From positions 1 through 40,407 of the forward strand of contig WFSJ01000043.1 in assembly GCA_015486055.1 (NCBI GenBank): a DNA stretch of 40,407 nucleotides, written 5' to 3'. Of this stretch, positions 6,739 to 40,065 are shown piece after piece. Position 1 is the first letter of the stretch. Each line of letters opens with the position of its first letter. The DNA is from Acidobacteriota bacterium. GTDB lineage: Bacteria > Acidobacteriota > Aminicenantia > S016-38. The translations under genes and the position numbers were made by a program. Under the pieces are notes generated by a model that was given only the letters and a program-made list of their open reading frames with translations, had not been told where the DNA came from and ran no database searches.

Positions 6739-7299
6739 TTAATTTTTTCCTGTGTCAAACTTTTCTTTCAGTTTTCCCTCAAGCTCTTCTATGGATGAGT
6801 AACCTATTTTTTGAAAAAGATATACATAGCTTTCCTCTGCAAGGTTTTTTCCTTCCCCCTTTGCCTTTGAAACATCTTTGAAATAAAGTTCTAATGTTCT
6901 GTCCGAGAATGTTTCAAGTTCACAAGAAAGATAGCTTTTAAAACTTTCAGGTTTTGAGCTAAAGATGCGAGGATATTTTACGGAAAGTTTTTCAATCCAT
7001 TTCCCTTCAATCTCAACGATTTTTTCTATTAGAGGATTTGAGTTCATAGGAGGGATGAGATTGTCCATTCTTGCATATTTTTCCATAAGAAGATTCCTTC
7101 CCTCTTTTTTGGCCTGCTGAAGATCACCAAGATAAGAAGAGAGGGTTTCAGCTGAGAGGGGATAGAATCTCGCTTCCCTGGTTATTTTGAAGGTTTCAGG
7201 GCGGTCTTTACATTTCTGATTGTTAGTTATCACCTGCTGAAACATTTCGTATTCAAGCTCTATGATTTGTTTCAAAAGCTTTTTCTTAAAAGTTTGCAT
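6739..7299 (-). CDS. DUF4125 family protein with internal duplication
   Basis: A 186-residue soluble protein that I recognise as DUF4125 from its opening (ELEYEMFQQV) and the motif RPETFKITREA...YLGDLQQAKKEGRNLL...KYARM. No biochemical function is known to me. The motif appears twice: about residues 33-77 and again at 118-165 (KPESFKSY...YFKDVSKAKGEGKNL), suggesting two similar helical halves. There is no signal peptide or membrane segment. It is the last gene of the minus-strand operon, starting 11 bases after the peptidase stop. No good Shine-Dalgarno stands at the usual distance; AGAGG is about 20 bases upstream, so translation may depend on coupling. It ends 36 bases from the convergent addB stop. 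Confidence 0.8.
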   Translation of the reverse strand: MQTFKKKLLKQIIELEYEMFQQVITNNQKCKDRPETFKITREARFYPLSAETLSSYLGDLQQAKKEGRNLLMEKYARMDNLIPPMNSNPLIEKIVEIEGKWIEKLSVKYPRIFSSKPESFKSYLSCELETFSDRTLELYFKDVSKAKGEGKNLAEESYVYLFQKIGYSSIEELEGKLKEKFDTGKN

Positions 7300-8716: not shown

Positions 8717-11080
8717 TTAAAAATTTTCGTGCTCTGTTCTTGCGATTATTTCATTCTGAAGGTCACTGCCGAGATTAACGAAATAATCGCTGTAACCCGC
8801 AACCCTTACTATAAGGTTTTTGTATTTCTCAGGATGTTTCTGGGCTTCCCTGAGGGTTTCTGCGCTGATAACATTGAATTGAATATGATGCCCGTCATAC
8901 CTGAAGTAGGTTCTCACTAAATAGGCAAGTTTGTCAATACCCTCATCGCCTTCAAGGAGCTTTGGCATGAATTTTTGGTTGAGGAGGGTTCCTCCTGTTC
9001 TTATATGGTCAAATTTTGCGACAGATTTCACTGCTGCTGTTGGGCCATATTTATCAGCACCCTGAGTTGGAGAAACACCATCGGATAAAGGTTCGCCCGC
9101 TTTCCTTCCATTGGGTGTTGCACCTGTAACTTTGCCGAAGTATATGTGGACGGTTGTTGGAAGGAGATTTACCCTGTATTTTCCACCTTTTGTGTTGGGT
9201 CTTTCATCAAGCACATTGAAATAGGCCTCAAATATCTCCTTTGCAATCTTGTCTGCATAATCATCGTCATTCCCGTATTTTGGAGCCTCGTTTAACAACA
9301 TTTGCCTGAGTTTTTCGTGCCCTTCGAAATTCCTCCTTAAAGCTTCCAGAAGTTCTTTCATTTCAAGATTCGCCTTATCATACACATGATATTTTATAGC
9401 GGATAAGGAGTCTGTAATAGTTCCCATTCCGACTCCCTGGATGTATGTTGTATTGTATCTGGGTCCTCCATCGTGATAGTCTCTTCCCTTTTTTATGCAA
9501 TCGTCCATAAGAAGGGACATGAAAGGAGCTGGCATATATTGGGCATAGAGCCTTTCTATTATGCTGTTTCCCTTGATCTTTATATCCACGAAGTATTTTA
9601 GTTGTTTTCTGTAAGCTTCCATAAGGTCCTCAAAGCTCTTGAAGCTTTCTGGGTCCCCAGTCTTTATTCCCACTTTTTTCCCTGTAATTGGGTCTATACC
9701 ATTGTTCAGTGTGATTTCCAGTATCTTGGGCCAGTTCATATATCCTGTAAGGGTGCAGCTTTCCTTTCCAAAGGCACTTATTGTTACGCATCCGCTTGGG
9801 CCTCCAAGTCTTGCATCCTCAATATTTTTTCCCTGCCTTAGAAATTCCATGATTATGGCGTCTGTGTTGAAGAAGGATGGCTGGCCGAAGCCTTTCTTTA
9901 CGACCTTAATTGCCCTTTTAAGAAAAGCGTCGGGATTTTTCTTGCTGAGCTGGACACATACGCTCGGCATCATCATTTCCATTTCCTCAAGGACGTCAAG
10001 CACAAGATATGAAAGCTCATTTACGGCATTTGAACCGTCCTTTTTGAGTCCGCCAACATTTATAAGAGAAAAATCCTGATAGGTTGCACTTTGCTCCTCT
10101 GTTACCCCCACTTTAGGAGGAGCTGGCTGGTTGTTGAATTTTATCCAGAAGCACTCAAGGAGTTCCTTTGCAAAGTCCTCTGAGAGTTTTCCCTCACCGA
10201 TGTCCTTTTTGAAAAAGGGATAAAGGTTAAGGTCAATGCGGCCTGGATTAAACGAGTCCCATACATTCAGCTCTGTTGTAACCCCAAGGTGTATGAACCA
10301 ATACATCTGGAGAGCTTCCCAGAAGTCCCTCGGTGCATGGGCAGGAACATGGGAACAAACATCGGCAATTTTTTCAAGTTCATTTTTCCTTTGAGGATTT
10401 TTCTCCTTCTTTTCAAGCTCCTTTGCAAGCTTTGAGTATCTGCCCGCAAGGATTATAATAGCGTCTGCTGCGATTTTCATCGCCTTAAGTTCCTGTTCCT
10501 TCCTGTATGCGTCAGGGTCATTGAAATAATCCAGTCGCCCTATCCTTTCATCTATTTCTCTCTTGAAATCTTCCATGCCCCTATGGTAAATCTTATCATC
10601 CAATATTGCATGGCCAGGGGCTCGCTGTTCCATAAACTCTGTAAAAACCCCTGCTTCAAAGGCATTATGCCACTCCTCGGTCATTTCAGCAAAGACTCTT
10701 TCCCTCATAGTTTTTCCTTCCCAGAACGGAATTATTTTCTCTCTGTAAATCTTCTTTACCTCATCTGAAACCTGAAACCTTGTCTTGTCTCTGCTGTTCA
10801 TCACCTCAAAGTCCTTTAGAGTATGAGTGCAGAGTTCGGGATATGTCGGAGTTGACCTTGGAGCAGGTCCCCTCTCTCCAACTATCAGCTCCCCTTCATC
10901 TATGGAAATCTTCTTGTGCTCCATTATGTATTTAAGAGCTAAGGCACGGGCAATTTGGGTTGATACTCTTTCTGGAATTCCCGATTTATAAAATTCTGTT
11001 AAAAGCTCAGCCCTTTCCGATGAAACGTAAGGTTCTGTCCCTACGCTTTTTTGCCTTAATTTTTTTACCCTTCTAGTCAT
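8717..11080 (-). CDS. HypD-like glycyl radical enzyme with Glu-to-Thr active-site change
   Basis: A 787-residue glycyl radical enzyme of the pyruvate formate-lyase superfamily. Radical site: Gly762 in VRVAGYSDYF. Thiyl Cys431 in GGPSGCVT. Throughout it follows trans-4-hydroxy-L-proline dehydratase (HypD) as I remember that sequence, for example ELIVGERG, EFMEQRAPGH, GVTTELNVWD, FNNQPAPPKVGVT and GHHIQFN. Residues matching the HypD pocket are kept: H157, D275, S331, F337 and T642. The HypD general base, two residues after the Cys (GCVE), is Thr433 here (codon ACA at 9784-9782). Dehydratases and decarboxylases of this superfamily carry Glu there; PFL has Ser. The reaction is therefore open: dehydration by another route, or a different lyase reaction. 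TAGGAGG lies just before the ATG. The activase gene is directly upstream. Confidence 0.9.
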   Translation of the reverse strand: MTRRVKKLRQKSVGTEPYVSSERAELLTEFYKSGIPERVSTQIARALALKYIMEHKKISIDEGELIVGERGPAPRSTPTYPELCTHTLKDFEVMNSRDKTRFQVSDEVKKIYREKIIPFWEGKTMRERVFAEMTEEWHNAFEAGVFTEFMEQRAPGHAILDDKIYHRGMEDFKREIDERIGRLDYFNDPDAYRKEQELKAMKIAADAIIILAGRYSKLAKELEKKEKNPQRKNELEKIADVCSHVPAHAPRDFWEALQMYWFIHLGVTTELNVWDSFNPGRIDLNLYPFFKKDIGEGKLSEDFAKELLECFWIKFNNQPAPPKVGVTEEQSATYQDFSLINVGGLKKDGSNAVNELSYLVLDVLEEMEMMMPSVCVQLSKKNPDAFLKRAIKVVKKGFGQPSFFNTDAIIMEFLRQGKNIEDARLGGPSGCVTISAFGKESCTLTGYMNWPKILEITLNNGIDPITGKKVGIKTGDPESFKSFEDLMEAYRKQLKYFVDIKIKGNSIIERLYAQYMPAPFMSLLMDDCIKKGRDYHDGGPRYNTTYIQGVGMGTITDSLSAIKYHVYDKANLEMKELLEALRRNFEGHEKLRQMLLNEAPKYGNDDDYADKIAKEIFEAYFNVLDERPNTKGGKYRVNLLPTTVHIYFGKVTGATPNGRKAGEPLSDGVSPTQGADKYGPTAAVKSVAKFDHIRTGGTLLNQKFMPKLLEGDEGIDKLAYLVRTYFRYDGHHIQFNVISAETLREAQKHPEKYKNLIVRVAGYSDYFVNLGSDLQNEIIARTEHENF

Positions 11081-11081
11081 T

Positions 11082-11996
11082 TTATCCTCCTATTTTTATC
11101 TCTAATCCGTATTTCTCAAGCTTTGACTTTACTTCCTCCACCTTTTCCCTGGATGGAGGAGAAATTATATATGGCTTCCATTCCCTTGAAAGTCTCTTAA
11201 ATTTATTCACCCAGGTATTGTGGTAAGGAAGAAGATTTACACCTTTTAGATTAGGAAGGGATGCAAGGAACTCTCCTGTTTTCTCTATGTTTTTCCTATC
11301 GTCGTTTAATTCTGGAATAAGGGGAAGGCGAACATTTACTCTTTTTCCCCTTTTCAGAAGCTCCCTCAAATTTTCAAGAATCAATTCGTTTGGGACTCCT
11401 GTATATTTATTGTGCTTTTTGCTGTCCATTATCTTCAGGTCGTAGAGGAAAAGGTCAACATACTCGCTTAGCCCTAAGAGAATTTCCTTGCTGACATAGC
11501 CAGAGGTATCAACTGCCGTATTTATATATCTTTTTTTACATTCTTTTAGAAGGGCCTCAAGGAATTTCGGCTGGAAGAAGGGCTCTCCTCCTGAAAAAGT
11601 TACCCCTCCTCCTGATTCTTCATAGAAAATTATGTCTTTTTCTATTTCCCCCATTACCTCTTCAGAAGTGACTTCTCTTCCAACAATTTCTATTGCCTTT
11701 GGATGGCATACTTTTATGCATTCCCCGCAGAGATCGCATTTTCCCCAGTCAATGGAAATCTCCCTGTCTATGGAAATTGCACTGTGTGGGCAGACAGGCA
11801 CGCAGTCACCACATTTTGTGCACCTATCCTGCCACAACATAATTTCTTGCTCTTTTTTTATCCCTTCAGGGTTGTGGCACCATGGACAGTGCAATGGGCA
11901 TCCTTTGAAGAAGATTGTGGTTCTTATTCCAGGCCCATCATGGATGGCATATCTTTTTATGTCAAAGATCATACCTTTAATCAATGGCTTTTTCAC
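11082..11996 (-). CDS. glycyl radical enzyme activase (radical SAM, two extra 4Fe-4S clusters)
   Basis: It uses S-adenosylmethionine to place the glycyl radical on the neighbouring enzyme. Seen in the 304-residue product: HDGPGIRTTIFFKGC, the radical-SAM CPLHCPWC (C-x3-C-x2-C), two ferredoxin-type sets (CTKCGDCVPVC and CDLCGECIKVC) inserted after it, GGGVTFSGGEP, and a DTSGY strand. The dicluster insert is usual for activases of HypD/CutC/HPAD-type enzymes and absent from PflA. For the start I chose GTG at 11996, which begins one base after the regulator stop and has GGAG at good distance; TTG at 12011 or ATG at 11972 are alternatives with poorer sites. The gene ends two bases before the radical enzyme start. 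Confidence 0.92.
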   Translation of the reverse strand: MKKPLIKGMIFDIKRYAIHDGPGIRTTIFFKGCPLHCPWCHNPEGIKKEQEIMLWQDRCTKCGDCVPVCPHSAISIDREISIDWGKCDLCGECIKVCHPKAIEIVGREVTSEEVMGEIEKDIIFYEESGGGVTFSGGEPFFQPKFLEALLKECKKRYINTAVDTSGYVSKEILLGLSEYVDLFLYDLKIMDSKKHNKYTGVPNELILENLRELLKRGKRVNVRLPLIPELNDDRKNIEKTGEFLASLPNLKGVNLLPYHNTWVNKFKRLSREWKPYIISPPSREKVEEVKSKLEKYGLEIKIGG

Positions 11997-11997
11997 T

Positions 11998-12711
11998 TTA
12001 TCTTTCTCCAAGAATTGTTGCGAGGGCTTTCTGATATTCTTCCAAAGGATAATATTTAACTATGTAATTCTTCTGTACTTCAAAGGACCAGTGGATATCC
12101 CTGATGTAGTCTGCCGCAAGCTTTATATTCCCTTTAGAAAGGAGCTTTAAGAACAGTTCATGCTCTTTGATTGAAGCCTCTTCCCATTCTTTTAGATATC
12201 CTTTCTGCCGCGGGAAATCGTAAAGTCTTTTTTTAAGATTGTCCACTATTTTCTTGAGATGTGTGTTTTTACAGAGGTTCAGATAAACATTGTGGAACTG
12301 AAGATTCCTTTCATAATAGATATCAAAATTATTCTTATCAATAGCTTCTTTCATCTTTCTGTTGAGCTTTTCCATCTCTTTTATTTTTGACCTTTCAATT
12401 TTTGAGAATGCGGAAAGAACAGCTGCCCTTTCAAGAGAACCTATAATTTGGTAGAAATCCTTTATGTCACTTAGAGTTAAGACATTCACGACCACTCCTT
12501 TTCTCGGGAGAATTCTGACGAATCCTTCCATTTCGAGCTGGATAAGAGCTTCTCTCAGGGGAGTCTTGCTTATTCCGAGTTGCTTTGCAGTCTTATTAAG
12601 ATTTATGACTGAACCCGGAAGAATATTTCCCTTACCCATTTGTTTCCTTAAATATTCGTAAACCTGCTGTTTGAGCGACTTAAAATTCAAAAGTCCATTT
12701 TCATTTTCCAT
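11998..12711 (-). CDS. GntR-family (FadR-like) transcriptional regulator
   Basis: A 237-residue regulator. The N-terminal winged helix-turn-helix (about 8-75) has LKQQVYEYLRKQM, AKQLGISKTPLREALIQLEMEGFV and RKGVVV, typical of GntR. The rest is an all-helical FCD-type ligand domain with NLQFH, KEHELFLKLL and ending near WSF. FCD regulators bind small organic acids, and many hold a metal. The start is ATG 12711 with GAGG just upstream. It is first in the operon with the activase, radical enzyme, peptidase and DUF4125 genes, so it probably controls them and itself through the palindrome at 12725-12743. The ligand is unknown; the substrate of the radical enzyme is the natural guess. Confidence 0.9.
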   Translation of the reverse strand: MENENGLLNFKSLKQQVYEYLRKQMGKGNILPGSVINLNKTAKQLGISKTPLREALIQLEMEGFVRILPRKGVVVNVLTLSDIKDFYQIIGSLERAAVLSAFSKIERSKIKEMEKLNRKMKEAIDKNNFDIYYERNLQFHNVYLNLCKNTHLKKIVDNLKKRLYDFPRQKGYLKEWEEASIKEHELFLKLLSKGNIKLAADYIRDIHWSFEVQKNYIVKYYPLEEYQKALATILGER

Positions 12712-12724
12712 TATTACCTCATCA

Positions 12725-12743
12725 CTAATATATAATATATCAG
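12725..12743. promoter_or_regulatory. imperfect palindrome over the -10 box: candidate GntR operator
   Basis: Read on the minus strand it is CTGATATAT-T-ATATATTAG, a 19-base inverted repeat with eight of nine arm positions paired. It covers the -10 hexamer of the operon promoter and lies 13 bases before the regulator ATG. Position and symmetry suit an autoregulatory operator, but AT-rich DNA gives such palindromes easily. Confidence 0.5.
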
Positions 12744-12760
12744 ATACCACAAAAAGTCAA
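12732..12760 (-). promoter_or_regulatory. promoter of the GntR-glycyl radical enzyme operon
   Basis: On the minus strand TTGACT (12760-12755) and TATTAT (12737-12732) are separated by 17 bases. Predicted transcription starts near 12725, leaving a short leader with GAGG before the ATG at 12711. Confidence 0.65.
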
Positions 12761-12913: not shown

Positions 12914-12942
12914 TTCTTTGTATTCTCGTATTATTATATAAT
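12914..12942 (+). promoter_or_regulatory. promoter of the Tricorn-type protease gene
   Basis: TATAAT lies at 12937-12942 with a weak TTCTTT at 12914-12919, 17 bases upstream. An AAAGGAGG ribosome site follows at about 12950-12957, before the ATG at 12962. The 12761-12913 stretch between the divergent promoters holds no gene that I can see. Confidence 0.5.
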
Positions 12943-12961
12943 GTGCAAGAAAGGAGGAATT

Positions 12962-15900
12962 ATGAAGAAAAAATTATTGGCATTGATTGTTTTCCTGGCA
13001 TTTATCGGTTTTAGTTTTGCCATAAGGGATGCTCGGCTACTGAGATTTCCTGATATCAATGGCAACCAAATTGTTTTCGTTTATGCCGGGGATATCTGGA
13101 CAGTATCGGCTAATGGTGGAGAGGCAAAGAGATTAACCTCAGATATCGGATTGGAACTTTTCCCAAAAATATCCCCTGATGGAAAATGGATTGCCTTTTC
13201 GGCAGAGTATTCAGGCTCCAGACAGGTCTATATTATGCCTGCAAAAGGAGGAATTCCAAGGCAGTTGACATATTACAATGATGTTGGAATTATGCCTCCA
13301 AGAGGGGGATGGGATTATGCTGTGCTTGATTGGACGCCTGACAGCAAAAATATTCTTATCAGGGCTAATAGAACGCCTTATGGAAGGAGAATGGGGAAAT
13401 ATTACTTGGTAAACATAGAGGGCGGGCTGGAGACCCCTCTTGAGATTCCAGAGGCTGGGTTTGGAAAATTCTCACCTGATGGCACTAAAATTGTTTATAC
13501 TCCTATTTCAAGAGAGTTCAGAACCTGGAAAAGATATAAAGGGGGAAGAGCTCAGGATGTGTGGATTTATGACCTCGTTCATCATACCTCAAAGCAAATT
13601 ACAAAGTTTGTTGGAACGGATGAGCAGCCAATCTGGTATAAGGACAAAATATACTTCGTGTCGGATAGAAAAACTGCAAAGCTTAATTTCTGGTCCTACG
13701 ACTTAAAAACAGGGCAGTTCAAACAGATAACGAACCATAAAGATTATGATGTTCTCTGGCCTTCTGGAAGAGGAGGACTCGTAGTTTATGAGAATGGCGG
13801 TTACATCTATAAGCTCAATCTTGACACAGGAAAGACGCAGAAGTTAACAGTAAATATTGATTTTGATGACCCGAATGTGCTTCCCCATTTTGAGAATGTC
13901 TCAAAGTTCACCTCCCGATTTGGTTATGCTATATCCCCCACAGGCAAGAGGGCAGTATTCGATGCAAGAGGGGATATATTCACCGTGCCAGCAAAGGAGG
14001 GTATAACCTATGACCTTACGAACTCTCAGGGCATAAAGGAGACATACCCGAGGTGGTCTCCTGATGGAAGATGGATAGCGATATATTCTGACAGGACAGG
14101 GGAGTATGAAATATATCTTATAGACCCCAAAGGTAAGAAGAAGCCCGTGCAGTTAACTAAAAATACCCATACATGGCGTTATCCTGTAGTATGGTCACCG
14201 AACAGTAAAAAACTTTTATTCTACGATAAAACAGAGCAAAAACTCAAGATACTTGATGTGGAGACAAGGAAGATAACAAATATTGACAGCGGAGTTTACT
14301 CAGACATTACAGATTACGACTGGTCTCCACAGTCTGACTGGGTAATCTATACGAACCAGGGAAAAAATGGACTTAATGCTGTCTGGGTATATTCCCTGAA
14401 AGAAAGCAAAAAATATCAGCTTACAGACAATAGATTCAATGAATTTTCGCCGGTATTTTCAAAAGATGGAAAGTATATCTTCTTCCTGTCAATGAGAGAT
14501 TTTAATATGGCATTTTCAAGCTATGAATTTGATTTCGTTTACAACAAAGCCACAAGAATATACGCTGTAGCTCTTACAAAAGATGCCCCGAGACTCTTTA
14601 AGGAGAAAAATGATGTAGAGACCGTCAAAGCAGAAAAGGGCAAAGCAAAGAAAGCAGAGGAAAATGGTAAGAAACCTTCTTCTAAAGCTAAAGGGATAAA
14701 GATAGATTTTCAGGGAATTAATGACAGGATTGTTTCCTTCCCGTTAAAACCCGATAACTATCTTGGCATTGCAGCTTTAAAGGATGGAATTTTATACTTT
14801 AAAGACGGTGCTATTTATAAGTTCAATATTGATAAGAAAAAATCCTCTCTAATCATTAAGGGAATAAAGGGTTGGGACATTGCAGCCGATGGAAAACACT
14901 TGCTCTATAAGGCAGGCAATAAGTACGGGATAATAGAGATAAAGCCCGACCAGAAAGTTGGCGCCGGGCAGTTGAGTTTGAAAGATGTCACCATGAAAAT
15001 CAATCCTAAGAAAGAGTGGGAAGAAATGTACAGAGATGGCTGGAGAATTTACAGAGATTGGTTCTATGTAAAAAATATGCACGGTGTTAATTGGGAAGCG
15101 ATGTATAAAAAATACAGGCCTCTTGTTAAATATGTAAGCCATAGAGCAGATCTTGATTATATCTTCGGAGAGCTTGTTTCGGAACTGAATGTAGGGCATT
15201 GTTATGTGCACTGGGGAGATTTCAAGAGACCGAAGAGAATTGACACCGGTCTTCTTGGAGCAGAGTTAAAGGCTGATAAAAGAGCAGGAAGATACAGGAT
15301 AGTCAAGATTTACAAGGGGGAAAACTGGAGCAAAGAGTTGAGATCACCTCTTACAGAGCAGGGGATAAATATAAAAGAGGGTGATTACATAATTAAGCTT
15401 AACAACCACGAAGTAACAATAAAAGATAACCCATATAAATTCCTGGAAAATACAGTTGGTAAAAGGATTCCTATAACTGTCAACTCAAAACCTGTGGAGA
15501 AAGGGGCAAAGACATACATTATAAGACCTATAAAAAGCGAACTGGCTCTTTTCCATTACGACTGGGTTAATTCAAGAAAGAAACTTGTTGATAGATTATC
15601 TGGCGGAAGAATCGGATATATTTATGTCCCTGATACAGCCGTTAAGGGAAATGCTGAACTCTTCAAGGGCTTCTATGCTCTTAGAGACAAGGATGCACTT
15701 ATTATAGATGACAGGTACAATGGAGGTGGATGGAGCCCTGGCAAAATGATAGATCTTCTCTCCCGTAAAATTGTGAGCTACTGGCATACAAGAGGGCACA
15801 AACTGATTCCCGAACCGTTTTTTGCTGTTGATGGACCGAAAGTGATGTTGATAAACCATTATGCATCTTCAGGAGGGGATAATTTCCCATACTGGTTCAG

Positions 15901-16234
15901 GAAAGCAAAATTGGGAATTATCATTGGAACAAGGAGCTGGGGAGGACTTGTAGGGTATGGATGGAGTCCTTCCCTTGTGGATGGGGCAGATTTTGCAGTT
16001 CCAAGTTTTGGGATTGTCGGCACAACAGGAAAATGGGTAGTAGAGGGTGTTGGAATATATCCAGACATAACAGTTGAAGATAGGCCTGAGGAAGTGGCTA
16101 AGGGCCACGACCCAAGCCTTGAGACAGCAGTTAAATACCTTTTAGACCAGCTTAAGAAACATCCGCCGAAAAGAGTCAAGAAGAGCCCAAAAGAACCTAA
16201 CAGATCAAAATGGTATGAAGGAAAGATAAAGTAA
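12962..16234 (+). CDS. secreted Tricorn-type protease with PDZ and S41 core
   Basis: A 1090-residue exported protease homologous to archaeal Tricorn, probably degrading peptides in the periplasm. Signal peptide: MKKKLLALIVFLAFIGFSFA. Residues 25-330 and 330-560 hold WD40/TolB-like propeller repeats (FPKISPDGKWIAFSAE, YPRWSPDGRWIAIYSD). A Lys-rich linker lies near 560-590. Tricorn C1 and PDZ regions follow, then the S41 core (about 880-1060). Catalytic candidates are His746 (LNVGHCYVHWGD) and Ser969/Ser970 (HYASSGGDNFPYWF); the former matches the number I recall for the archaeal His. The start is ATG 12962, because AAAGGAGG sits just before it; an in-frame ATG at 12941 overlaps the -10 box. 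It ends four bases from the convergent TPR gene. Confidence 0.93.
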   Translation: MKKKLLALIVFLAFIGFSFAIRDARLLRFPDINGNQIVFVYAGDIWTVSANGGEAKRLTSDIGLELFPKISPDGKWIAFSAEYSGSRQVYIMPAKGGIPRQLTYYNDVGIMPPRGGWDYAVLDWTPDSKNILIRANRTPYGRRMGKYYLVNIEGGLETPLEIPEAGFGKFSPDGTKIVYTPISREFRTWKRYKGGRAQDVWIYDLVHHTSKQITKFVGTDEQPIWYKDKIYFVSDRKTAKLNFWSYDLKTGQFKQITNHKDYDVLWPSGRGGLVVYENGGYIYKLNLDTGKTQKLTVNIDFDDPNVLPHFENVSKFTSRFGYAISPTGKRAVFDARGDIFTVPAKEGITYDLTNSQGIKETYPRWSPDGRWIAIYSDRTGEYEIYLIDPKGKKKPVQLTKNTHTWRYPVVWSPNSKKLLFYDKTEQKLKILDVETRKITNIDSGVYSDITDYDWSPQSDWVIYTNQGKNGLNAVWVYSLKESKKYQLTDNRFNEFSPVFSKDGKYIFFLSMRDFNMAFSSYEFDFVYNKATRIYAVALTKDAPRLFKEKNDVETVKAEKGKAKKAEENGKKPSSKAKGIKIDFQGINDRIVSFPLKPDNYLGIAALKDGILYFKDGAIYKFNIDKKKSSLIIKGIKGWDIAADGKHLLYKAGNKYGIIEIKPDQKVGAGQLSLKDVTMKINPKKEWEEMYRDGWRIYRDWFYVKNMHGVNWEAMYKKYRPLVKYVSHRADLDYIFGELVSELNVGHCYVHWGDFKRPKRIDTGLLGAELKADKRAGRYRIVKIYKGENWSKELRSPLTEQGINIKEGDYIIKLNNHEVTIKDNPYKFLENTVGKRIPITVNSKPVEKGAKTYIIRPIKSELALFHYDWVNSRKKLVDRLSGGRIGYIYVPDTAVKGNAELFKGFYALRDKDALIIDDRYNGGGWSPGKMIDLLSRKIVSYWHTRGHKLIPEPFFAVDGPKVMLINHYASSGGDNFPYWFRKAKLGIIIGTRSWGGLVGYGWSPSLVDGADFAVPSFGIVGTTGKWVVEGVGIYPDITVEDRPEEVAKGHDPSLETAVKYLLDQLKKHPPKRVKKSPKEPNRSKWYEGKIK

Positions 16235-17883: not shown

Positions 17884-18783
17884 TTATCCTCCAATCAAGC
17901 ATCCCAGAGCGATAGAATTGAGTTTATCCTCTTCAGTTTCGTTTCTGGAAGGAATGAGGAGTGGCACTGCAGCGCCCATTATTATGTGACCAACCGGGAG
18001 GTTCATATAGTAGGTGAAGCTCTTTCCGAAGATGTTTCCAGCCTCTATGTTAGGAACTATAAATATGTCAGGGTCCCCTGCAATTTCGCTATTGTATTTC
18101 TTTTTCTCGGCAGCCTTCTTGCTTACAGCTATGTCAAGCGCCATCGGCCCCTCTATTATGCTCTCCGGAAATTCTCCCCTTTCCCACATTTTCCTTATTT
18201 CTCCAGCGTCCAGTGTAGCAGGCATTTTCTCGTTTACAACTTCTATAGCCGCAAGAAGTGCAATCTTGGGCTTTGAAACCCCAAGTTTGTGGAATGCTTC
18301 TATGGCGTTTTTAATAATCTGAATCTTGGCCAAAAGGTCAGGCTCAATGTTTACCCCCCCATCGCTCATTCCTATAAGCTTCTGGCGGTTGTGAAGAGGG
18401 TCCTCTGTGAAAAAGACATCGGAGAGAAGATGTCCAGTTCTAAGCCCTTTTTCCTTGTCAAGAGCAGGGTGGAGGAATTCCCCTGTTCTTAAGGCACCCT
18501 TCAGGAGGACCTTTGCTCTATTCTGCCTCGCAAGTTCTACCGCCCTTGTAGCAGCCTCTTCCTTACTATCCTCTTCTATTATCTCAGCATCCATTTCCCT
18601 TGCGTGTTCCTTTATGAGTTTTTCTATCTCTGCCCTAATTCCTATAAGTATGGGATGGGAAATTCCCAGCTTCCATGCCTTGTAAGCAGCAAGTATTGCT
18701 GTTTTGTCCATTGACCACGGAATTGCAACCTCAACTTTTCCTTTATCTGCTGCCCTTTTTCTTACTTCCTCAAAATTCAGCAT
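17884..18783 (-). CDS. ptb: phosphate butyryltransferase family, second copy
   Basis: A 299-residue acyl-CoA:phosphate acyltransferase: acyl-CoA + Pi gives acyl phosphate + CoA. Family features include VLLKGALRTGEFLHPALDKEKGLR, IGMSDGGVNIEPDL, KIALLAAIEVVN, IIEGPMALDIAVS and ending in a glycine-rich GHIIMGAAVPLLIPSRNETEEDKL. The start is ATG 18783, preceded by AAAGGAGG; a longer frame from 18804 lacks a site. It overlaps iorB by 14 bases and is last in the buk-ptb-iorAB-ptb2 operon. It differs clearly from the first copy at 21163-22062 (LRTGEFLHP here, LISTIYYMK there), so the two probably take different acyl groups. A phosphate acetyltransferase role cannot be excluded. Confidence 0.85.
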   Translation of the reverse strand: MLNFEEVRKRAADKGKVEVAIPWSMDKTAILAAYKAWKLGISHPILIGIRAEIEKLIKEHAREMDAEIIEEDSKEEAATRAVELARQNRAKVLLKGALRTGEFLHPALDKEKGLRTGHLLSDVFFTEDPLHNRQKLIGMSDGGVNIEPDLLAKIQIIKNAIEAFHKLGVSKPKIALLAAIEVVNEKMPATLDAGEIRKMWERGEFPESIIEGPMALDIAVSKKAAEKKKYNSEIAGDPDIFIVPNIEAGNIFGKSFTYYMNLPVGHIIMGAAVPLLIPSRNETEEDKLNSIALGCLIGG

Positions 18784-19357
18784 TTTCCACAACCTCCTTT
18801 CCAAGCCTGAAGGCTATTTTATTTGCCTCTATAGCCTTTTTTGGAACTCGTCTCTCTATGATCTTGAGCCATATGTCCTCAGAAATATTCAGGCTTTTGG
18901 AGAGAACGCCAAGAAGAGCAACGTTCATTGTTCTCATATTACCTGCTTTTTCTGCAAGCTTTTTTGCATCTACAGGTATTGTTTTAACCTTTTGTTTTAG
19001 ATATTCTGTTATATTTTCAGGGTATTCCATGGTTCCAGAAGCGACTGGAAGAGGGTCTATGCGATACTCGTTTACTATTATCGTGCCCCCTTTTTTGAGG
19101 AATGGAAGGTTTCTCATTGCCTCAAGTTCTTCAAAGGCGAGGATCACCTCTGCTCCTCCCAAGCCAACTATTGGGGAATAGACCTTTTCGCCGAAGCGGA
19201 CTGTGGAGGTTACATCTCCTCCTCTCTGGCTCATTCCGTGTATCTCGGATTTTTTTACATCATATCCTGCTTCCATTGCAACCTCAGAAAGTAGATTTGA
19301 GGCGAGGATTATTCCTTGTCCTCCCACTCCTGCTATTATTACTGATTTTGTTTCCAT
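18770..19357 (-). CDS. iorB: indolepyruvate ferredoxin oxidoreductase, beta subunit
   Basis: A 195-residue gamma-type subunit of 2-oxoacid:ferredoxin oxidoreductases. Seen: AGVGGQGIILASNLLSEVA at the N terminus, KKSEIHGMSQRGGDVTSTVRFG near 35-57, and GGAEVILAFEELEAMR. It pairs with IorA to oxidise aryl- or branched-chain 2-oxoacids to acyl-CoA with reduction of ferredoxin. Length is usual for IorB. GAGAGGAGG precedes the ATG. It overlaps iorA by 19 bases and ptb2 by 14, so stoichiometric coupled translation is likely. Confidence 0.92.
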   Translation of the reverse strand: METKSVIIAGVGGQGIILASNLLSEVAMEAGYDVKKSEIHGMSQRGGDVTSTVRFGEKVYSPIVGLGGAEVILAFEELEAMRNLPFLKKGGTIIVNEYRIDPLPVASGTMEYPENITEYLKQKVKTIPVDAKKLAEKAGNMRTMNVALLGVLSKSLNISEDIWLKIIERRVPKKAIEANKIAFRLGKEVVENAEF

Positions 19358-21153
19358 CCTAATACCTCCTCTCCTGCTTTTCTTGCGTTGTCTGCATTGG
19401 GGTCTCTAAGGCTTATGGCATCTACAGGGCATACATCAATACATACACCGCATCCGACGCAGAGGTCTGGATTTATCCAGGTCTTTTTCTCTTTTGTAAC
19501 CGAAATTGCAGGGCAGCCAAGCTTCCAGCAAAGGGTGCAGGAGGTGCATTTTTCCTCGTCTGCTACCGCATAGGTGTATTTCCTCTTGCGGAGCTCAGGA
19601 AGAAGGACGCATGGGCGTCTTGCAATTATAACCGAAGGCTCCTGCCTGTGTATTTCCCGGTTTATGAGTTCCTTGAGACCTTTAAGGTCGAAGCTGTCTA
19701 TGGTATACACATGCTCTATCCCGATTCCACGGACGAGGCGTTCTATATCTATAGTTCTTCCTGGCACCCCTTTAAGAGTCTTTCCTGAGCCTGGATTGTC
19801 CTGATGCCCCGTCATTGCAGTTATTCTGTTGTCAAGAATTATCACAGTGGTTATCCCATTATTGTAAAAGAGGTCCATCAGAGGGGTAACTCCTGAATGG
19901 AAGAATGTTGAATCCCCGATTACTGCAACAAGCTTCTTTTTCCTTGGGTCAAGGCCTCTCATCGACTCTGCTATTTCTATTCCAAAAGCATTTCCTATAC
20001 TTGCTCCCATCTCAACTGTTGTGTCCATTGACGAAAGAGGTGGGAGGGCTCCAAGGGTGTAGCATCCTATATCGCCTGTGACATTAGCTTTGAGCCTTTT
20101 TAATGTGTAGAAAACCCCTGTGTGAGGGCATCCCGGACAAAGGGCAGGTGGCCTATGGGGTATCTTTGGAATATCAAAATGTGAGGGGTCTTTTCCTTTT
20201 AGGGCTTTCATGACTATTGTTGGATTCAGTTCCCCTGTCATTGGTATTTTATCCTTTCCTATTATTTTTATGCCGAGGTTCATTGCTTTTAAGTGCATCT
20301 CAAGGAATGGGTCACCCTCTTCTATAATATATATCTTCTTGACTTTTCCTGCGAATTTTCTTATGAGCTTTTCGGGAAGGGGCCATGTAAGGAGGAGCTT
20401 AAGGAATGTGGCATTGGGAAAAACTTCCCTTGCATATTGGTAGGAAATTCCGTTGGCAACTATTCCAATTGATGGATCACCTTCCTCAATTCTATTCCCC
20501 CAGAAATTTTCTCCAAATTCTTTTATTTTTATTGTCCTTTCCTCAACAAGTTTATGACGAACCCTTGCATTTGAAGGGAGTAAATTTCTCTTGTGGAAAT
20601 CAGGGACATAACCCTTTATTTCCACTTCTTTCCTTTCGTCAAACTCCACTATTGAGAGTGAATGGGAGATTCTCGTAGTCGTTCTGACCATCCAAGGGGT
20701 GTCAAATTTTTCGCTGAGAACGAGAGCCTCCTTTGTAAGTTCCTTTGCTTCCTGGGAGTCTGTTGGCTCAAACATTGGCATTTTCGCATGGAGGGCATAC
20801 CAGCGGTTATCCTGCTCGTTTTGAGAACTGTGCATTCCTGGATCATCTGCGCATACGACAACAAGGCCGCCGGTTGAACCTATGTAGCTTGCCGAAAAGA
20901 AGGGGTCTGCTGCAACATTAAGACCAACAAGTTTCATCGCAACGAGTGAACGGGCTCCTGCAAAGCTTGCCCCAAGAGCGATTTCAAGTGAGGTCTTTTC
21001 ATTTACTGCCCATTGGGACCTTATCTCAGGATAATTCCCTATGTTTTCAAGGATTTCTGTTGAAGGGGTACCGGGATAGGCTGTAGCAAAATGTCCTCCC
21101 CCTTCCCAAAACCCCCTTGCTATTGCCTCATTTCCAGAAAGTATAGCTTTCAT
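19339..21153 (-). CDS. iorA: indolepyruvate ferredoxin oxidoreductase, alpha subunit
   Basis: A 604-residue catalytic subunit with thiamine diphosphate and two 4Fe-4S clusters. The N-terminal pyrimidine-binding half has GNEAIARGFWEGGGHFATAY and NEKTSLEIALGASFAGARS. LCPGCPHTGVFYTLKRL starts the C half, with the ThDP motif GDSTFFHSGVTPLMDL and ITAMTGHQDNPGSG. The C-terminal ferredoxin domain has CTSCTLCWKLGCPAI and CVGCGVCIDVCP. The family oxidises 2-oxoacids from aromatic amino acids; some act on branched-chain or other substrates, and the flanking Ptb/Buk genes suggest short acyl products. AAGGAGG precedes the ATG, nine bases after the ptb stop. Confidence 0.95.
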   Translation of the reverse strand: MKAILSGNEAIARGFWEGGGHFATAYPGTPSTEILENIGNYPEIRSQWAVNEKTSLEIALGASFAGARSLVAMKLVGLNVAADPFFSASYIGSTGGLVVVCADDPGMHSSQNEQDNRWYALHAKMPMFEPTDSQEAKELTKEALVLSEKFDTPWMVRTTTRISHSLSIVEFDERKEVEIKGYVPDFHKRNLLPSNARVRHKLVEERTIKIKEFGENFWGNRIEEGDPSIGIVANGISYQYAREVFPNATFLKLLLTWPLPEKLIRKFAGKVKKIYIIEEGDPFLEMHLKAMNLGIKIIGKDKIPMTGELNPTIVMKALKGKDPSHFDIPKIPHRPPALCPGCPHTGVFYTLKRLKANVTGDIGCYTLGALPPLSSMDTTVEMGASIGNAFGIEIAESMRGLDPRKKKLVAVIGDSTFFHSGVTPLMDLFYNNGITTVIILDNRITAMTGHQDNPGSGKTLKGVPGRTIDIERLVRGIGIEHVYTIDSFDLKGLKELINREIHRQEPSVIIARRPCVLLPELRKRKYTYAVADEEKCTSCTLCWKLGCPAISVTKEKKTWINPDLCVGCGVCIDVCPVDAISLRDPNADNARKAGEEVLGWKQNQ

Positions 21154-21162
21154 AAAACCTCC

Positions 21163-22062
21163 TTATGCCATGGCCGCAGCCATAAGGATTGAGTAAAATT
21201 TTGAATCCTCGCTGTCAGAGCGGGATGTCAGGATTGCTGGGGCAGAAGCTCCAGCTACCATTGCTGCTATAGAACCACCTCCAAGATATGTAACCGTTTT
21301 GAAGAAGACATTCCCTGTTTCTATATCGTGGAAGATAAGTATATCCGCATCCCCTGCAATAGGAGAATCAATTCCTTTTATCTCTGCCGACTCCTTTGAA
21401 AGGGCTATGTCAAGGGCTATTGGCCCATCAACTATTGCTCCCTTGATCTGATGTCTTTTTGCCATTGTTGATATTAGAGCCGCATCAACTGTGCCAGGAA
21501 TTTTTTCAGAAACTTTCTCGTTGGCTGCAATTATAGCAGCCTTTGGTTCTTGAATGCCGAGTTTATGGGCAACTTCTATGCAGTATTTAAGCATTGCAAC
21601 TTTCTGGTCAAGTGTGGGTGTAGGTATGACTGCAACATCTGAAACTATCAGAATTTTGTGGTAACGGGGAGCATCTACCAGGGTAACGTGAGAAAGAACT
21701 TTCCCCGGAGGGAGAAGTCCGTTCTGCTTGTCAAGAATTGCTTTCATATAATAAATTGTGCTTATGAGTCCTTTCATTACCATGTGGGCTTTACCTTCAT
21801 GAACGAGCTGAACCGCCGTTCTTCCACACTGAGCTTCATCCTTTTCCTCAACTATCTGAAACATGCTGTGGTCAACTCCGAACTTCTTTGCTATAGCCTC
21901 TATCTTTTCCCTTTCTCCAACGAGGATAGCATCAACAAATCCATTTCTTACTGCCTTTGCAACTGCTTCAAAAGTATTGGGGTCCTGCCCCCTTGCAACT
22001 GCAAGGACTTTTTTTTCTCTTCCTTTAACCAGTTCCTCTAAATCTTTTAATCTTTTGACCAT
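21163..22062 (-). CDS. ptb: phosphate butyryltransferase family, first copy
   Basis: A 299-residue enzyme that converts acyl-CoA and phosphate to acyl phosphate. It shows the family layout: VLAVARGQDPNTFEAVAKAV, ILVGEREKIEAIAKKFGV, AHMVMKGLISTIYYMKAILD, ILIVSDVAVIPTPTLDQKVAML, IIAANEKVSEKIPGTVDAA, IVDGPIALDIALS, and a C-terminal Gly/Ala-rich segment GGGSIAAMVAGASAPAI...SRSDSEDSK. Length matches clostridial Ptb (about 300). AAGGAGG lies before the ATG. It sits between buk and iorA, and its product is the direct substrate of the kinase. The true acyl chain could be isobutyryl, isovaleryl, phenylacetyl or butyryl. Confidence 0.9.
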   Translation of the reverse strand: MVKRLKDLEELVKGREKKVLAVARGQDPNTFEAVAKAVRNGFVDAILVGEREKIEAIAKKFGVDHSMFQIVEEKDEAQCGRTAVQLVHEGKAHMVMKGLISTIYYMKAILDKQNGLLPPGKVLSHVTLVDAPRYHKILIVSDVAVIPTPTLDQKVAMLKYCIEVAHKLGIQEPKAAIIAANEKVSEKIPGTVDAALISTMAKRHQIKGAIVDGPIALDIALSKESAEIKGIDSPIAGDADILIFHDIETGNVFFKTVTYLGGGSIAAMVAGASAPAILTSRSDSEDSKFYSILMAAAMA

Positions 22063-22078
22063 ATTAAGCCTCCTTATG

Positions 22079-23146
22079 TTAATATTCCATTGCTTTTTCC
22101 TCTCCTTTGAGAACCCTCAGGGCTCCAAAGGCTAATGCCCTCATCTCATCTTCACCTGGATATACAAGAACAGGGGCTATAAATGAAACTCTTTCTTTGA
22201 TCCACCCAACGAACATTTCGGAATGAGCAAGACCACCTGTAAGGACAATAGCATCCACTCTTCCCTTCAGGACCGTAGCATCTGCTCCTATTTCCTTTGC
22301 AGTTTGATAGGCCATTGCCTGGAATACAAGATTCGCCTTCTCGTCTCCCTGCTTTATCATTTTCCCGACTTCCTTCATATCATTTGTGCCAAGGTAGGAA
22401 ACTATGCCCCCTCCTCCTGCAAGTTTCTTCTTAAGTTGTCTTTCTGTAAATTTTCCTGAAAGGGCAAGCTTCATTGCATCCCACACAGGGAGGCCACCTG
22501 CTCGTTCAGGGGCAAAGGGACCATCGCCGTTCAGAGCATTGTTTACATCAATTACCCTTCCCTTGCTGTGAACTCCGACTGAGATTCCCCCACCAAGATG
22601 GACTACAATAAGGTTCACCTCATTATATCTTTTGCCAAGCTTTTTAGCTGCAAGACGAGCAACTGCCTTATGATTAAGGGCATGGAATATTGAGCGTCTC
22701 TGTATTTCTGGAATGCCCGAGAGCTTTGCAATTGGTTCCATTTCATCTACAACCACAGGGTCAACAATAAAAGCTGGAATCCCGTAAGGCTTCGCTATTT
22801 CGTAGGCAAGAATTCCTCCAAGATTTGATGCGTGTTCTCCCTGAAGTCCTATTCTCAAGTCGTGAATCATCGCCTCATTTACCCTGTAAGTTCCCCCTGG
22901 AATCGGTCTTAAGAGTCCTCCTCTTCCAACGACTGCTGAAATTTCCTGAAGATCAATATTTTCCTCTTTAAGCGCGTTCAGAATGACTTTTTCCCTGAAT
23001 TCATACTGGTCAACTATTTTCTCAAACCTGGAGATTTCCTCCTTTGGATGGAAAAGGTTCTTATTAAATATCTTTTCCTCATCTTCAAAAACGCCTATCT
23101 TCGTTGAAGTGCTTCCAGGATTAACAACTAATACTTTATAATTCAT
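22079..23146 (-). CDS. buk: butyrate kinase family (acyl kinase)
   Basis: A 355-residue acetokinase-family enzyme making ATP from acyl phosphate and ADP, the energy-yielding step of the operon. Seen: VLVVNPGSTSTKIGVFEDE at the N terminus; AVVGRGGLLRPIPGGTYRVN; QGEHASNLGGILAYEIA; FIVDPVVVDEMEPIAKLSG; RRSIFHALNHKAVAR; VVHLGGGISVGVHSKGRVID; and VLTGGLAHSEMFVGWIKERV. All are typical of Buk rather than AckA, and the length is usual. AAAGGAGG precedes the ATG, and a strong promoter ends just upstream. It is the first gene of the operon buk-ptb-iorA-iorB-ptb2. Confidence 0.95.
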   Translation of the reverse strand: MNYKVLVVNPGSTSTKIGVFEDEEKIFNKNLFHPKEEISRFEKIVDQYEFREKVILNALKEENIDLQEISAVVGRGGLLRPIPGGTYRVNEAMIHDLRIGLQGEHASNLGGILAYEIAKPYGIPAFIVDPVVVDEMEPIAKLSGIPEIQRRSIFHALNHKAVARLAAKKLGKRYNEVNLIVVHLGGGISVGVHSKGRVIDVNNALNGDGPFAPERAGGLPVWDAMKLALSGKFTERQLKKKLAGGGGIVSYLGTNDMKEVGKMIKQGDEKANLVFQAMAYQTAKEIGADATVLKGRVDAIVLTGGLAHSEMFVGWIKERVSFIAPVLVYPGEDEMRALAFGALRVLKGEEKAMEY

Positions 23147-37964: not shown

Positions 37965-38138
37965 ATGAAAAACGAAAAGGGAAAAGCAAGGGAAACGACA
38001 GGCTCAATTAGAGGGATGTATATCTGCAATACTGCGTATATACTACCAGGCCGGAAGAATATCCGCAATGCAGATATGAACGAGTTAGGCGAAATCACCC
38101 GAAGTTTCAATAAAATAGATATCAAAAATAAGTGGTAA
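37965..38138 (+). CDS. small leaderless ORF ahead of the methyltransferase (57 aa)
   Basis: Unrecognised. It begins six bases after a near-consensus promoter and ends three bases before the methyltransferase ATG. The product is basic (start MKNEKGKARETTGS, end NKIDIKNKW) with no clear helix-turn-helix. Controller proteins of restriction-modification systems are often small and leaderless and sit in this place, but the sequence does not look like the XRE-type family. It could be a leader peptide that couples translation into the methyltransferase, or no protein at all. Confidence 0.4.
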   Translation: MKNEKGKARETTGSIRGMYICNTAYILPGRKNIRNADMNELGEITRSFNKIDIKNKW

Positions 38139-38140
38139 AC

Positions 38141-39430
38141 ATGGAAAATTGGGCAAAGATAATAATTGGTGACAGCCGAAAGATGATTGAAGTTGAAGAC
38201 AACTCGGTTCAGTTAATAATTACCTCTCCACCCTATTGGTCTATAAAAAATTATGATGTAAAAGCGCAAATAGGCTATGGTCAAAGTCTTCACGAATATT
38301 TGAAAGATTTATACAGAGTATGGAAGGAGAGCTACAGGGTATTAGAGCCGGGGCGAAGATTAGTGATAAACATCGGTGATCAATTTGCAAGGTCGATAAT
38401 TTATGGAAGATATAAAATTATTCCCCTACATTCAGAAATAATAGCTCAATGTGAGGAGATTGGTTTTGACTATATGGGTTCTATTATATGGCAGAAGAAG
38501 ACAACGATGAACACTACGGGCGGAGCGAGTGTTATGGGCTCCTATCCATATCCACCCAATGGAATGGTTGAAATAGATTATGAACACATCCTTATTTTTA
38601 AGAAACCCGGTAAGAGTAAAATAATTCCAGAAGACATAAAGGAAAAATCAAGGCTTGTTAAAGAAGAATGGAAAGAGTATTTTTATGGTCATTGGCATTT
38701 TGGTGGTGCGAGACAAATAGATCATGAAGCAATGTTCCCTGAAGAATTACCTAAGAGAATAATAAAAATGTTCACATTTGTTGGGGAAACTGTTTTAGAC
38801 CCTTTTTCAGGAAGTGGCACAACATTAAAAGTTGCTTTAGATTTAAATAGGAATGCTATTGGATATGAAATAAACGAGAATTTTTTAGATGTCATAAGAA
38901 AAAAGGTCAGAGCAAAAGATCTTATACGTTTTGAAAGAAAAATAGAAATTATAAAAAGGAAAAATCCTGTTGTCGCAGAGACCATTAACTATTTGCCACG
39001 GATTAAAGACGCAAAGCCAATAATAGAGCCAGATAAATTCAATTTTAAGAAAGATAGACTTTACAAAGTTGTAGAGATATTAAATGATGGAAAAATTAAG
39101 TTAGATACGGGGCTGATTGTAAAATTTATAGGTGTAGTAATACAGGATTTGGATGCAACCAAGCAATATTTAGAGAACTATGTTCTGAAAAAAAAGATTT
39201 ATTTAAAATTTGATAAAAATTATGTTGCTAATGGAGATTTTGTGGAAGCATACATCTATTTGAAAAACAAAATATTCATTAATTCGTTTTTAGTAAAAAG
39301 TGGTTTGGCCATTGCAGACAGGGAGAATAACTACGATTTAAAGAGACAATTCCTCATTTTAGAAATGCAAAATAATCAAGAGGGCATAGGAAACACTACC
39401 AAAAAAGAGGCGATTAAAGAGACACAATAG
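38141..39430 (+). CDS. DNA N4-cytosine methyltransferase with C-terminal SNase-like region
   Basis: A 429-residue methyltransferase protecting host DNA from the adjacent nuclease. Catalytic motif TSPPYW is at 28-33, and the SAM-binding motif DPFSGSGTT near 220 comes after it (beta order). SPPYW is typical of N4-cytosine enzymes. After about 300 a separate region (YKVVEILNDGKIKLDTG, VKFIGVV, AYIYLKNKIFINSFLVKSGLA) follows the strand pattern of staphylococcal nuclease. The Arg/Glu catalytic positions are changed (the RLxGxDxPE-like segment reads VKFIGVVIQD; the YGR position reads DFV), so it is probably a binding domain. I chose ATG 38141; GTG 38132 is an alternative. The partner nuclease suggests CTAG as target. 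Confidence 0.9.
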   Translation: MENWAKIIIGDSRKMIEVEDNSVQLIITSPPYWSIKNYDVKAQIGYGQSLHEYLKDLYRVWKESYRVLEPGRRLVINIGDQFARSIIYGRYKIIPLHSEIIAQCEEIGFDYMGSIIWQKKTTMNTTGGASVMGSYPYPPNGMVEIDYEHILIFKKPGKSKIIPEDIKEKSRLVKEEWKEYFYGHWHFGGARQIDHEAMFPEELPKRIIKMFTFVGETVLDPFSGSGTTLKVALDLNRNAIGYEINENFLDVIRKKVRAKDLIRFERKIEIIKRKNPVVAETINYLPRIKDAKPIIEPDKFNFKKDRLYKVVEILNDGKIKLDTGLIVKFIGVVIQDLDATKQYLENYVLKKKIYLKFDKNYVANGDFVEAYIYLKNKIFINSFLVKSGLAIADRENNYDLKRQFLILEMQNNQEGIGNTTKKEAIKETQ

Positions 39431-39441
39431 GAGGTTGAATT

Positions 39442-40065
39442 GTGGAATTTAAAATAAAAGTTGATGAAATAAGGGCATTGATGGAGATAGAAGCCCCTTA
39501 TTTCCCAAAGTATGCGACACAGATACTGAATTTGGCAAACCAAAATGCTCAAGCTACAAGACCGAAAGTCGTTGGGCAGATGAGTGAATTAATAAAGGAA
39601 TTCACCGGGAGAACATTAGAAGAATGGGAAAAATGGTATTTAGAGAGATATCCAGATTCCATAGAAAATGCAACCAAAAAGGTTTTAGATATGATTGAAA
39701 ATTTTAAAGATGCAATGAACCAGATTGATAAAGACATAATTAGACAATGGGTTAGGGATTTGGTAATAGTAAAAACTTTTATTGGTCTTCGATTTCAAGA
39801 AGCTGTTTTAAAAAAGATAGCAAATAAATTTAATCTTGAATACAGGTTGTCTAATCCAGAGGAAGAAAGCAAAGGGATAGATGGATATGCAGGTGAATTT
39901 CCAATTAGCTTAAAACCATCTACTTACACATCAAAAAAGATGCTATCCGAGAAGTTAGAAGGATATGTAATATTTTATGAGAAGCAGAAGGATGGGTTAA
40001 AAATCATTGTTCCTGAAGAATTAGAAAATATGCTCATTAATAAAAGCAAGAGGAATTCAAAATGA
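39442..40065 (+). CDS. MjaI-like type II restriction endonuclease
   Basis: A 207-residue protein. The segment YATQILNLANQNAQATRPKVVGQMSEL near 25-51 is what I recognise as the MjaI endonuclease family, whose known member cuts C^TAG. A PD-(D/E)XK-like core is suggested by GIDGYAGEFPISLKPSTY near 149-166. The GTG start has GGAGG upstream, 11 bases after the methyltransferase stop. The m4C-type partner agrees with CTAG enzymes. Composition is AT-rich compared with the rest of the window, consistent with horizontal arrival. Confidence 0.8.
   Translation: MEFKIKVDEIRALMEIEAPYFPKYATQILNLANQNAQATRPKVVGQMSELIKEFTGRTLEEWEKWYLERYPDSIENATKKVLDMIENFKDAMNQIDKDIIRQWVRDLVIVKTFIGLRFQEAVLKKIANKFNLEYRLSNPEEESKGIDGYAGEFPISLKPSTYTSKKMLSEKLEGYVIFYEKQKDGLKIIVPEELENMLINKSKRNSK

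What the first reader, a model, noticed from the sequence alone, without database searches (positions are those of the whole stretch)
8717..11080. HypD-like glycyl radical enzyme with the catalytic Glu replaced by Thr
Seen: Cys431 and Gly762 are in place, and residues matching the hydroxyproline dehydratase pocket (H157, D275, S331, F337, T642) are kept, but the GCVE motif reads GCVT (Thr433). Known: in glycyl radical dehydratases and decarboxylases the Glu two residues after the Cys acts in proton transfer; PFL has Ser there but uses two Cys. Inference: the enzyme binds a proline-like or related substrate and runs a different reaction. The Thr codon ACA differs from Glu codons at two or more bases, so one read error does not explain it.
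Basis: partly seen in the sequence, partly recalled or inferred. Interest (0 to 1): 0.8.

Follow-up and report, generated by a model that had tools for sequence, protein, structure and literature searches.

The report
Hydroxyproline enzyme lacking its catalytic glutamate
A radical enzyme that probably helps anaerobic microbes break down hydroxyproline from collagen-like peptides has a threonine where its best-studied relative needs a glutamate to work, and across many bacteria and archaea that one position has switched between the two residues several times, giving a natural experiment on how these enzymes work.

Summary
Window 8717-11080 (-) encodes an intact 787-aa glycyl radical enzyme (GRE) of the HypD family, with Cys431, Gly762 and every tested HypD pocket residue, but GCVT for GCVE. 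It is not an error: 26 genes carry Thr, in Aminicenantes, WOR-3, Latescibacteria, Bipolaricaulota, Planctomycetota, Bathyarchaeota and Theionarchaea, with all four Thr codons. All lie in one supported 'GPSG' subclade inside HypD, with private changes beside the pocket (Gln330, Ala158, Ser435, Cys375). Within it Thr and Glu interchange at least five times (AU test rejects one Thr clade, p=0.0002), no other residue tracks the switch, and Thr and Glu versions share gene contexts. The window's GntR-activase-GRE-Xaa-Pro peptidase operon is the one around ordinary GCVE HypDs of the same class. The genome also has trans-3-hydroxyproline genes and P5C dehydrogenase.

Best reading: a hydroxyproline dehydratase in collagen-type peptide catabolism that still makes P5C, with Thr433/His157 positioning the leaving hydroxyl and Asp275 as acid, although E436Q kills C. 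difficile HypD. New variant of a known kind.

The parts
8717..11080 (-). HypD-family glycyl radical enzyme, 787 aa, GCVT variant
   Evidence: NCBIfam NF043068 1295 bits; PDB 6vxc 1074 bits; AF2 model TM 0.97 to 6vxc
9782..9784 (-). codon ACA of Thr433, in place of the CxE glutamate (Glu436 of C. difficile HypD)
9788..9790 (-). codon of Cys431, the thiyl radical residue
8795..8797 (-). codon of Gly762, the glycyl radical residue
   Evidence: Pfam Gly_radical
10091..10093 (-). codon of Gln330, subclade signature (Glu in all ordinary HypDs sampled), next to pocket Ser331
11082..12011 (-). radical-SAM glycyl radical activase
   Evidence: best NCBIfam hit is the HypD activase NF043069, 398 bits (cut-off 425); TIGR02494 over its cut-off
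11998..12750 (-). GntR/FCD-type regulator, first gene of the cluster
   Evidence: Pfam GntR + FCD; same place in L001, L085 and ordinary HypD loci L087, L090, L092, L093, L095
7311..8702 (-). M24 peptidase with aminopeptidase P N-domain (Xaa-Pro peptidase type)
   Evidence: Pfam Peptidase_M24 + AMP_N; Xaa-Pro aminopeptidase model 202 bits, under its cut-off
6739..7299 (-). DUF4125 protein, last gene of the cluster; also present in L001's cluster
   Evidence: Pfam PF13526 183 bits

Best explanation
This is a hydroxyproline dehydratase of the HypD family that has replaced the CxE glutamate with threonine and probably still turns trans-4-hydroxy-L-proline into P5C while the organism feeds on collagen- or gelatin-like peptides. 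Inferred steps: the Xaa-Pro peptidase frees hydroxyproline; the radical-SAM activase puts a radical on Gly762; Cys431 becomes a thiyl radical and takes H from C5; Asp275 takes the amine proton and gives it to the leaving C4 hydroxyl; Ser331, Tyr447 and Thr642 hold the carboxylate and Phe337 the ring. In ordinary HypD a Glu held by His160 accepts a hydrogen bond from the hydroxyl. Here Thr433, His157 and probably a water in the freed space would hold it instead. The changed second shell of this subclade (Gln330, Ala158, Ser435, Cys375, usually Trp450) would be what makes the Glu dispensable. In this genome P5C would go to glutamate by P5C dehydrogenase. Shown here: sequence, conservation, tree, gene contexts, presence of P5C dehydrogenase. 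Not shown: activity, substrate, the role of Thr.
For: Inside HypD by tree and by NCBIfam equivalog model. H157, D275, S331, D336, F337, Y447, T642, C431, G762 unchanged in every Thr gene that covers them. Same GntR-activase-GRE-M24 order as GCVE HypDs of the same class (L087, L092, L093, L095). Thr and Glu members of the subclade share contexts: M2/M3-like peptidase (L007 vs L009, L018, L028), trans-3-hydroxyproline dehydratase + reductase (L001, L190 vs L025, L193), M24 (window, L001 vs L009, L018, L028). The window's genome has trans-3-hydroxyproline dehydratase and reductase genes behind remnants of a second GRE and M24 gene and P5C dehydrogenase over cut-off. At least five Glu/Thr switches with no tracking residue. 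Published mechanism gives the acid role to Asp278 and a positioning role to Glu436 (PMC7077986).
Against: E436Q abolishes activity in C. difficile HypD (PMC7077986), so a Glu-less enzyme needs rescue that I only infer. The subclade's private residues could instead mark a changed substrate. No ProC in this genome. The activase scores below the HypD-activase cut-off (398 vs 425). Many Thr genes (archaea, WOR-3, some Planctomycetota) lack informative neighbours.
Confidence: 0.62

Rival explanations
1. Same kind of elimination, other substrate: the Thr enzymes prefer another hydroxyproline (cis-4, D, N-substituted, or a small hydroxyprolyl peptide), the Glu/Thr position tuning the orientation of the hydroxyl.
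For: Pocket kept but second shell changed in the subclade. Other GREs for hydroxyproline isomers exist: N-methyl-cis-4-hydroxy-L- and D-proline dehydratases (8id1, 8iof). Hydroxyproline-isomer genes lie nearby in several loci.
Against: Known isomer enzymes are distant (about 34% identity) and 8id1 has GCVE. Thr and Glu members share contexts. Carboxylate, amine and ring contacts are all kept. The nearby trans-3-hydroxyproline genes already serve that isomer.
Confidence: 0.2
2. Different reaction on hydroxyproline or proline, for example C-N cleavage as in HplG, made possible by removing the Glu.
For: Loss of a residue that is essential in HypD; HplG shows that a GRE can open the ring of hydroxyproline (7vua).
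Against: HplG is a distant GRE (449 bits vs 1074 for HypD). P5C dehydrogenase is present in this genome and its nearest Thr relatives. Glu and Thr versions alternate in the same operon types. A ketyl-type route would need a base to take the hydroxyl proton, which argues against losing Glu (inference).
Confidence: 0.07
3. Position 433 is simply not important in this subclade (relaxed site), and Thr has no role of its own.
For: Repeated interchange with no tracking residue is what a nearly neutral site would show.
Against: Only Thr and Glu are seen in 37 subclade members, never Ala or Lys, the one-step intermediates, although each change needs two bases; that points to selection for these two. 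The site is Glu in all 78 ordinary HypDs compared.
Confidence: 0.08

Closest known systems
HypD, trans-4-hydroxy-L-proline dehydratase of Clostridioides difficile (PDB 6vxc/6vxe; NCBIfam NF043068)
   Same: Fold (TM 0.97, 56% identity), Cys and Gly loops, all other tested pocket residues, own activase next door, family tree.
   Different: Thr433 for Glu436; Gln330 for Glu333, Ala158 for Thr161, Ser435 for Gly438; M24 peptidase operon; no ProC in the genome.
GCVE members of the same 'GPSG' subclade (L009, L018, L025, L168-170 and others)
   Same: All subclade signature residues and several shared gene contexts.
   Different: Glu at 433; none has been characterised in the papers searched.
N-methyl-cis-4-hydroxyproline dehydratases (8id1, 8iof)
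   Same: GRE dehydratases acting on a hydroxyproline-type ring.
   Different: About 34% identity; 8id1 has GCVE.
HplG, hydroxyproline C-N lyase (7vua)
   Same: GRE with a hydroxyproline substrate.
   Different: 32% identity, 449 bits only; different product (title of the PDB entry, own knowledge).
Pyruvate formate-lyase
   Same: A GRE without a Glu two residues after the Cys (own knowledge).
   Different: Uses two adjacent Cys and another reaction; only 114 bits.

Membership tests
HypD (trans-4-hydroxy-L-proline dehydratase) | Sequence over the curated equivalog cut-off and place inside the HypD tree | tested here: met
   1295 vs 1100 bits; subclade nested in the HypD branch, SH-aLRT 99
HypD (trans-4-hydroxy-L-proline dehydratase) | Radical Gly and thiyl Cys loops | tested here: met
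   Gly762 and Cys431
HypD (trans-4-hydroxy-L-proline dehydratase) | Pocket residues H160, D278, S334, D339, F340, Y450, T645 | tested here: met
   All present at the matching positions in the window gene and in every Thr gene that covers them
HypD (trans-4-hydroxy-L-proline dehydratase) | CxE glutamate (Glu436), essential in C. difficile HypD | tested here: not met
   Thr433 in the window gene and 25 relatives; E436Q inactive (PMC7077986)
HypD (trans-4-hydroxy-L-proline dehydratase) | Cognate radical-SAM activase | tested here: inconclusive
   Adjacent activase; best model is the HypD activase but at 398 bits under its cut-off of 425
HypD (trans-4-hydroxy-L-proline dehydratase) | A way to use P5C in the genome | tested here: met
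   P5C dehydrogenase 702 bits over cut-off 660; ProC not found
HypD (trans-4-hydroxy-L-proline dehydratase) | Dehydrates trans-4-hydroxy-L-proline to P5C | not testable with these tools
   Needs anaerobic enzyme assay
GRE eliminases with a CxE motif (GD, PD, CutC, IslA, HypD) | Cys-X-Glu in the Cys loop | tested here: not met
   Cys-Val-Thr
Pyruvate formate-lyase | Two adjacent Cys in the Cys loop and PFL-like sequence | tested here: not met
   Single Cys431; TIGR01255 166 bits vs cut-off 994

The most novel reading that the evidence does not exclude
The GCVT enzymes are a functionally distinct GRE: the loss of the CxE glutamate marks a new substrate (another hydroxyproline isomer or derivative) or a new radical reaction, and the Glu-Thr position is an evolutionary switch thrown at least five times between two activities within one subclade.
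Probability: 0.22. Interest if true: 0.82.

Novelty: new variant of a known kind. Interest (0 to 1): 0.6.

Why it matters
The CxE glutamate is regarded as a hallmark of GRE eliminases and is essential in the one HypD studied by mutation. A widespread subclade that swaps it for Thr and back, with the rest of the pocket fixed, tests directly whether HypD's Glu is needed for chemistry or only for positioning, a question the structural paper left partly open. Practically, NCBI's curated HypD model accepts the window gene as HypD without a warning, so the motif is a residue-level flag for annotators; and it extends likely anaerobic hydroxyproline use to Aminicenantes, WOR-3 and archaea.

Tried and rejected
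Sequencing error or pseudogene: rejected (26 genes, four Thr codons, purifying selection). A single Thr clade without switches: rejected (AU p=0.0002). A compensating acidic residue elsewhere in Thr members: looked for and not found; Glu328 is typical of the subclade but is Val or Met in some Thr members and present in most Glu members. ProC as the partner: absent. The proline racemase-family neighbour as a 4-hydroxyproline epimerase feeding the GRE: in L001, L190 and this genome it has the Cys-Thr pair of trans-3-hydroxyproline dehydratase, not Cys-Cys. Papers: searches for HypD relatives and CXE-motif variants found the HypD and IslA structural papers and nothing on GCVT enzymes.

Full report
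What is there. The window gene 8717-11080 (-) is a complete 787-aa GRE. It matches NCBI's HypD equivalog model at 1295 bits (cut-off 1100) and C. difficile HypD 6vxc at 1074 bits, far above any other solved GRE. An AF2 model from 26 relatives (mean pLDDT 86.6) superposes on 6vxc with TM 0.97. Cys431 and Gly762 are present, and so are seven other residues whose mutation abolished or cut activity in the HypD structural study (H160, D278, S334, D339, F340, Y450, T645 in C. difficile numbers); the remaining one, Glu436, is Thr433.

The Thr is a property of a clade. A genome-collection scan and whole-genome scans of the window's phylum and four others gave 122 distinct HypD-family or near rows: Glu in 95, Thr in 26, one unreadable. 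The Thr genes come from Aminicenantes, WOR-3, Latescibacteria, Bipolaricaulota, Planctomycetota, Bathyarchaeota and Theionarchaea, written ACA, ACC, ACG or ACT. All 26 have the motif GGPSGCVT. Together with 11 Glu genes they form one branch inside HypD (SH-aLRT 99). Against 78 ordinary HypDs this subclade has private or near-private residues: Gln330 (always Glu elsewhere), Ser435 (always Gly), Cys375, Ala158 (Thr), Cys442 (Tyr), Pro428 and Trp450. Three lie next to key residues in sequence (158 by His157, 330 by Ser331, 435 by 433), so a change of the second shell, not only of position 433, defines the group.

Thr and Glu have interchanged. With columns 424-451 left out, the tree of the subclade needs six changes at 433 and well-supported branches force five. 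A tree with all Thr rows together is rejected (log-likelihood 406 lower, AU p=0.0002). Each change needs two bases, yet no other residue occurs among 37 members. No other position tracks Thr against Glu. The clearest case is L167 (Thr; same gene as L007) and L009 (Glu), sisters with 99/94 support. Direction is not settled: Thr is commonest and occupies the early branches of the subclade, so one Glu-to-Thr change followed by several reversals is the simplest story.

Gene context points to hydroxyproline. The window order is GntR regulator, activase, GRE, M24 Xaa-Pro peptidase, DUF4125, all on the minus strand. Ordinary GCVE HypDs of the same taxonomic class (L087, L092, L093, L095) have the same GntR-activase-GRE-M24 order. 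The nearest relative L001 (83%) adds a proline racemase-family protein with the Cys-Thr pair and an OCD-family reductase, the two enzyme types of the trans-3-hydroxyproline pathway; L190 (Thr) and L025 and L193 (Glu) have the same two, and L014 (Thr) the first of them. The window's own genome has these two genes on contig C12 directly behind broken remnants of a second GRE and a second M24 gene, in the order of L001. The first protein is closest to 6r76 and 7qpo, the latter named trans-3-hydroxy-L-proline dehydratase, and its best NCBIfam model is trans-3-hydroxy-L-proline dehydratase, though under cut-off. L007 (Thr) and L009, L018 and L028 (Glu) are followed by an M2/M3-like peptidase, the last three also by a sodium/solute symporter and M24. 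In G512 and G524 the Thr gene follows a kinase-aminotransferase fusion closest to ethanolamine-phosphate phospho-lyase; an animal paralogue of that enzyme acts on phosphohydroxylysine (own knowledge), so a link to hydroxylysine is possible but unproven. Bathyarchaeal Thr genes lie near genes that look like glycine cleavage gcvP (identified by eye). Hydroxyproline, proline and glycine together are what collagen gives; that reading is inference.

Where the product would go. HypD's product P5C is often reduced by ProC. ProC is not detectable in the window's genome (98.9% complete) or in 12 other Thr genomes, while the same search finds it in 12 of 14 control genomes. P5C dehydrogenase scores over its curated cut-off in this genome and the four nearest Thr genomes, so P5C would be oxidised to glutamate. 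The window also has a 2-oxoacid:ferredoxin oxidoreductase with two phosphotransacylase genes and an acetate/butyrate kinase-type gene (17884-23146), in keeping with amino-acid fermentation.

Mechanism. The structural study (PMC7077986) proposes that Asp278 both deprotonates the amine and protonates the leaving hydroxyl, and that Glu436 and His160 position that hydroxyl, unlike other GRE eliminases where the Glu is the base that makes a ketyl radical. HypD is therefore the eliminase in which losing the Glu is chemically least surprising. Yet E436Q is inactive in C. difficile HypD, with about a quarter of the wild-type radical content (12.4 against 51%). I propose that in this subclade the altered second shell lets Thr433, His157 and a water do the positioning. 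This is inference; loops 153-156 and 331-335 of the model are poorly determined and I had no coordinates.

Verdict. Observation confirmed and strengthened: a clade with repeated switches, not one odd gene. Interpretation partly supported: proline-like pocket yes, different reaction not supported. By descent it belongs to HypD; because the CxE Glu, a defining feature, is not met and activity is untested, I file it as a GCVT variant of HypD that probably works like HypD. The taxonomic place of the window (Candidatus Aminicenantes) is inferred from its nearest relative L001.

Noticed in passing
L210:3984-6695 (contig C12 of the window's genome): Broken remnants of a second HypD-like GRE and a second M24 gene directly in front of intact trans-3-hydroxyproline dehydratase-type and OCD-family reductase genes, in the gene order of relative L001: a decayed duplicate of the operon.
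   Followed up: partly
L218:243-4021 (contig C10 of the window's genome): P5C dehydrogenase next to a class-III aminotransferase on the other strand, the same arrangement as in relative G308 (L219); ProC absent from this genome and 12 other Thr genomes.
   Followed up: partly
L194 and L195: A kinase-aminotransferase fusion closest to ethanolamine-phosphate phospho-lyase lies directly before a GCVT GRE; it could act on hydroxylysine, another collagen residue.
   Followed up: partly
window 38132-40065: DNA methylase (N6_N4_Mtase) followed by an MjaI-type restriction endonuclease: a type II restriction-modification pair.
   Followed up: no
window 17884-23146: 2-oxoacid:ferredoxin oxidoreductase genes between two phosphotransacylase paralogues and an acetate/butyrate kinase-like gene, pointing to ATP from amino-acid fermentation.
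   Followed up: no
window 12941-16234: Tricorn-like S41 protease with PDZ and beta-propeller domains, divergent from the GRE operon.
   Followed up: no
L074: A distant GRE (34% identity) with GCIQ, Gln in place of the CxE Glu: another non-Glu GRE outside the HypD family.
   Followed up: no
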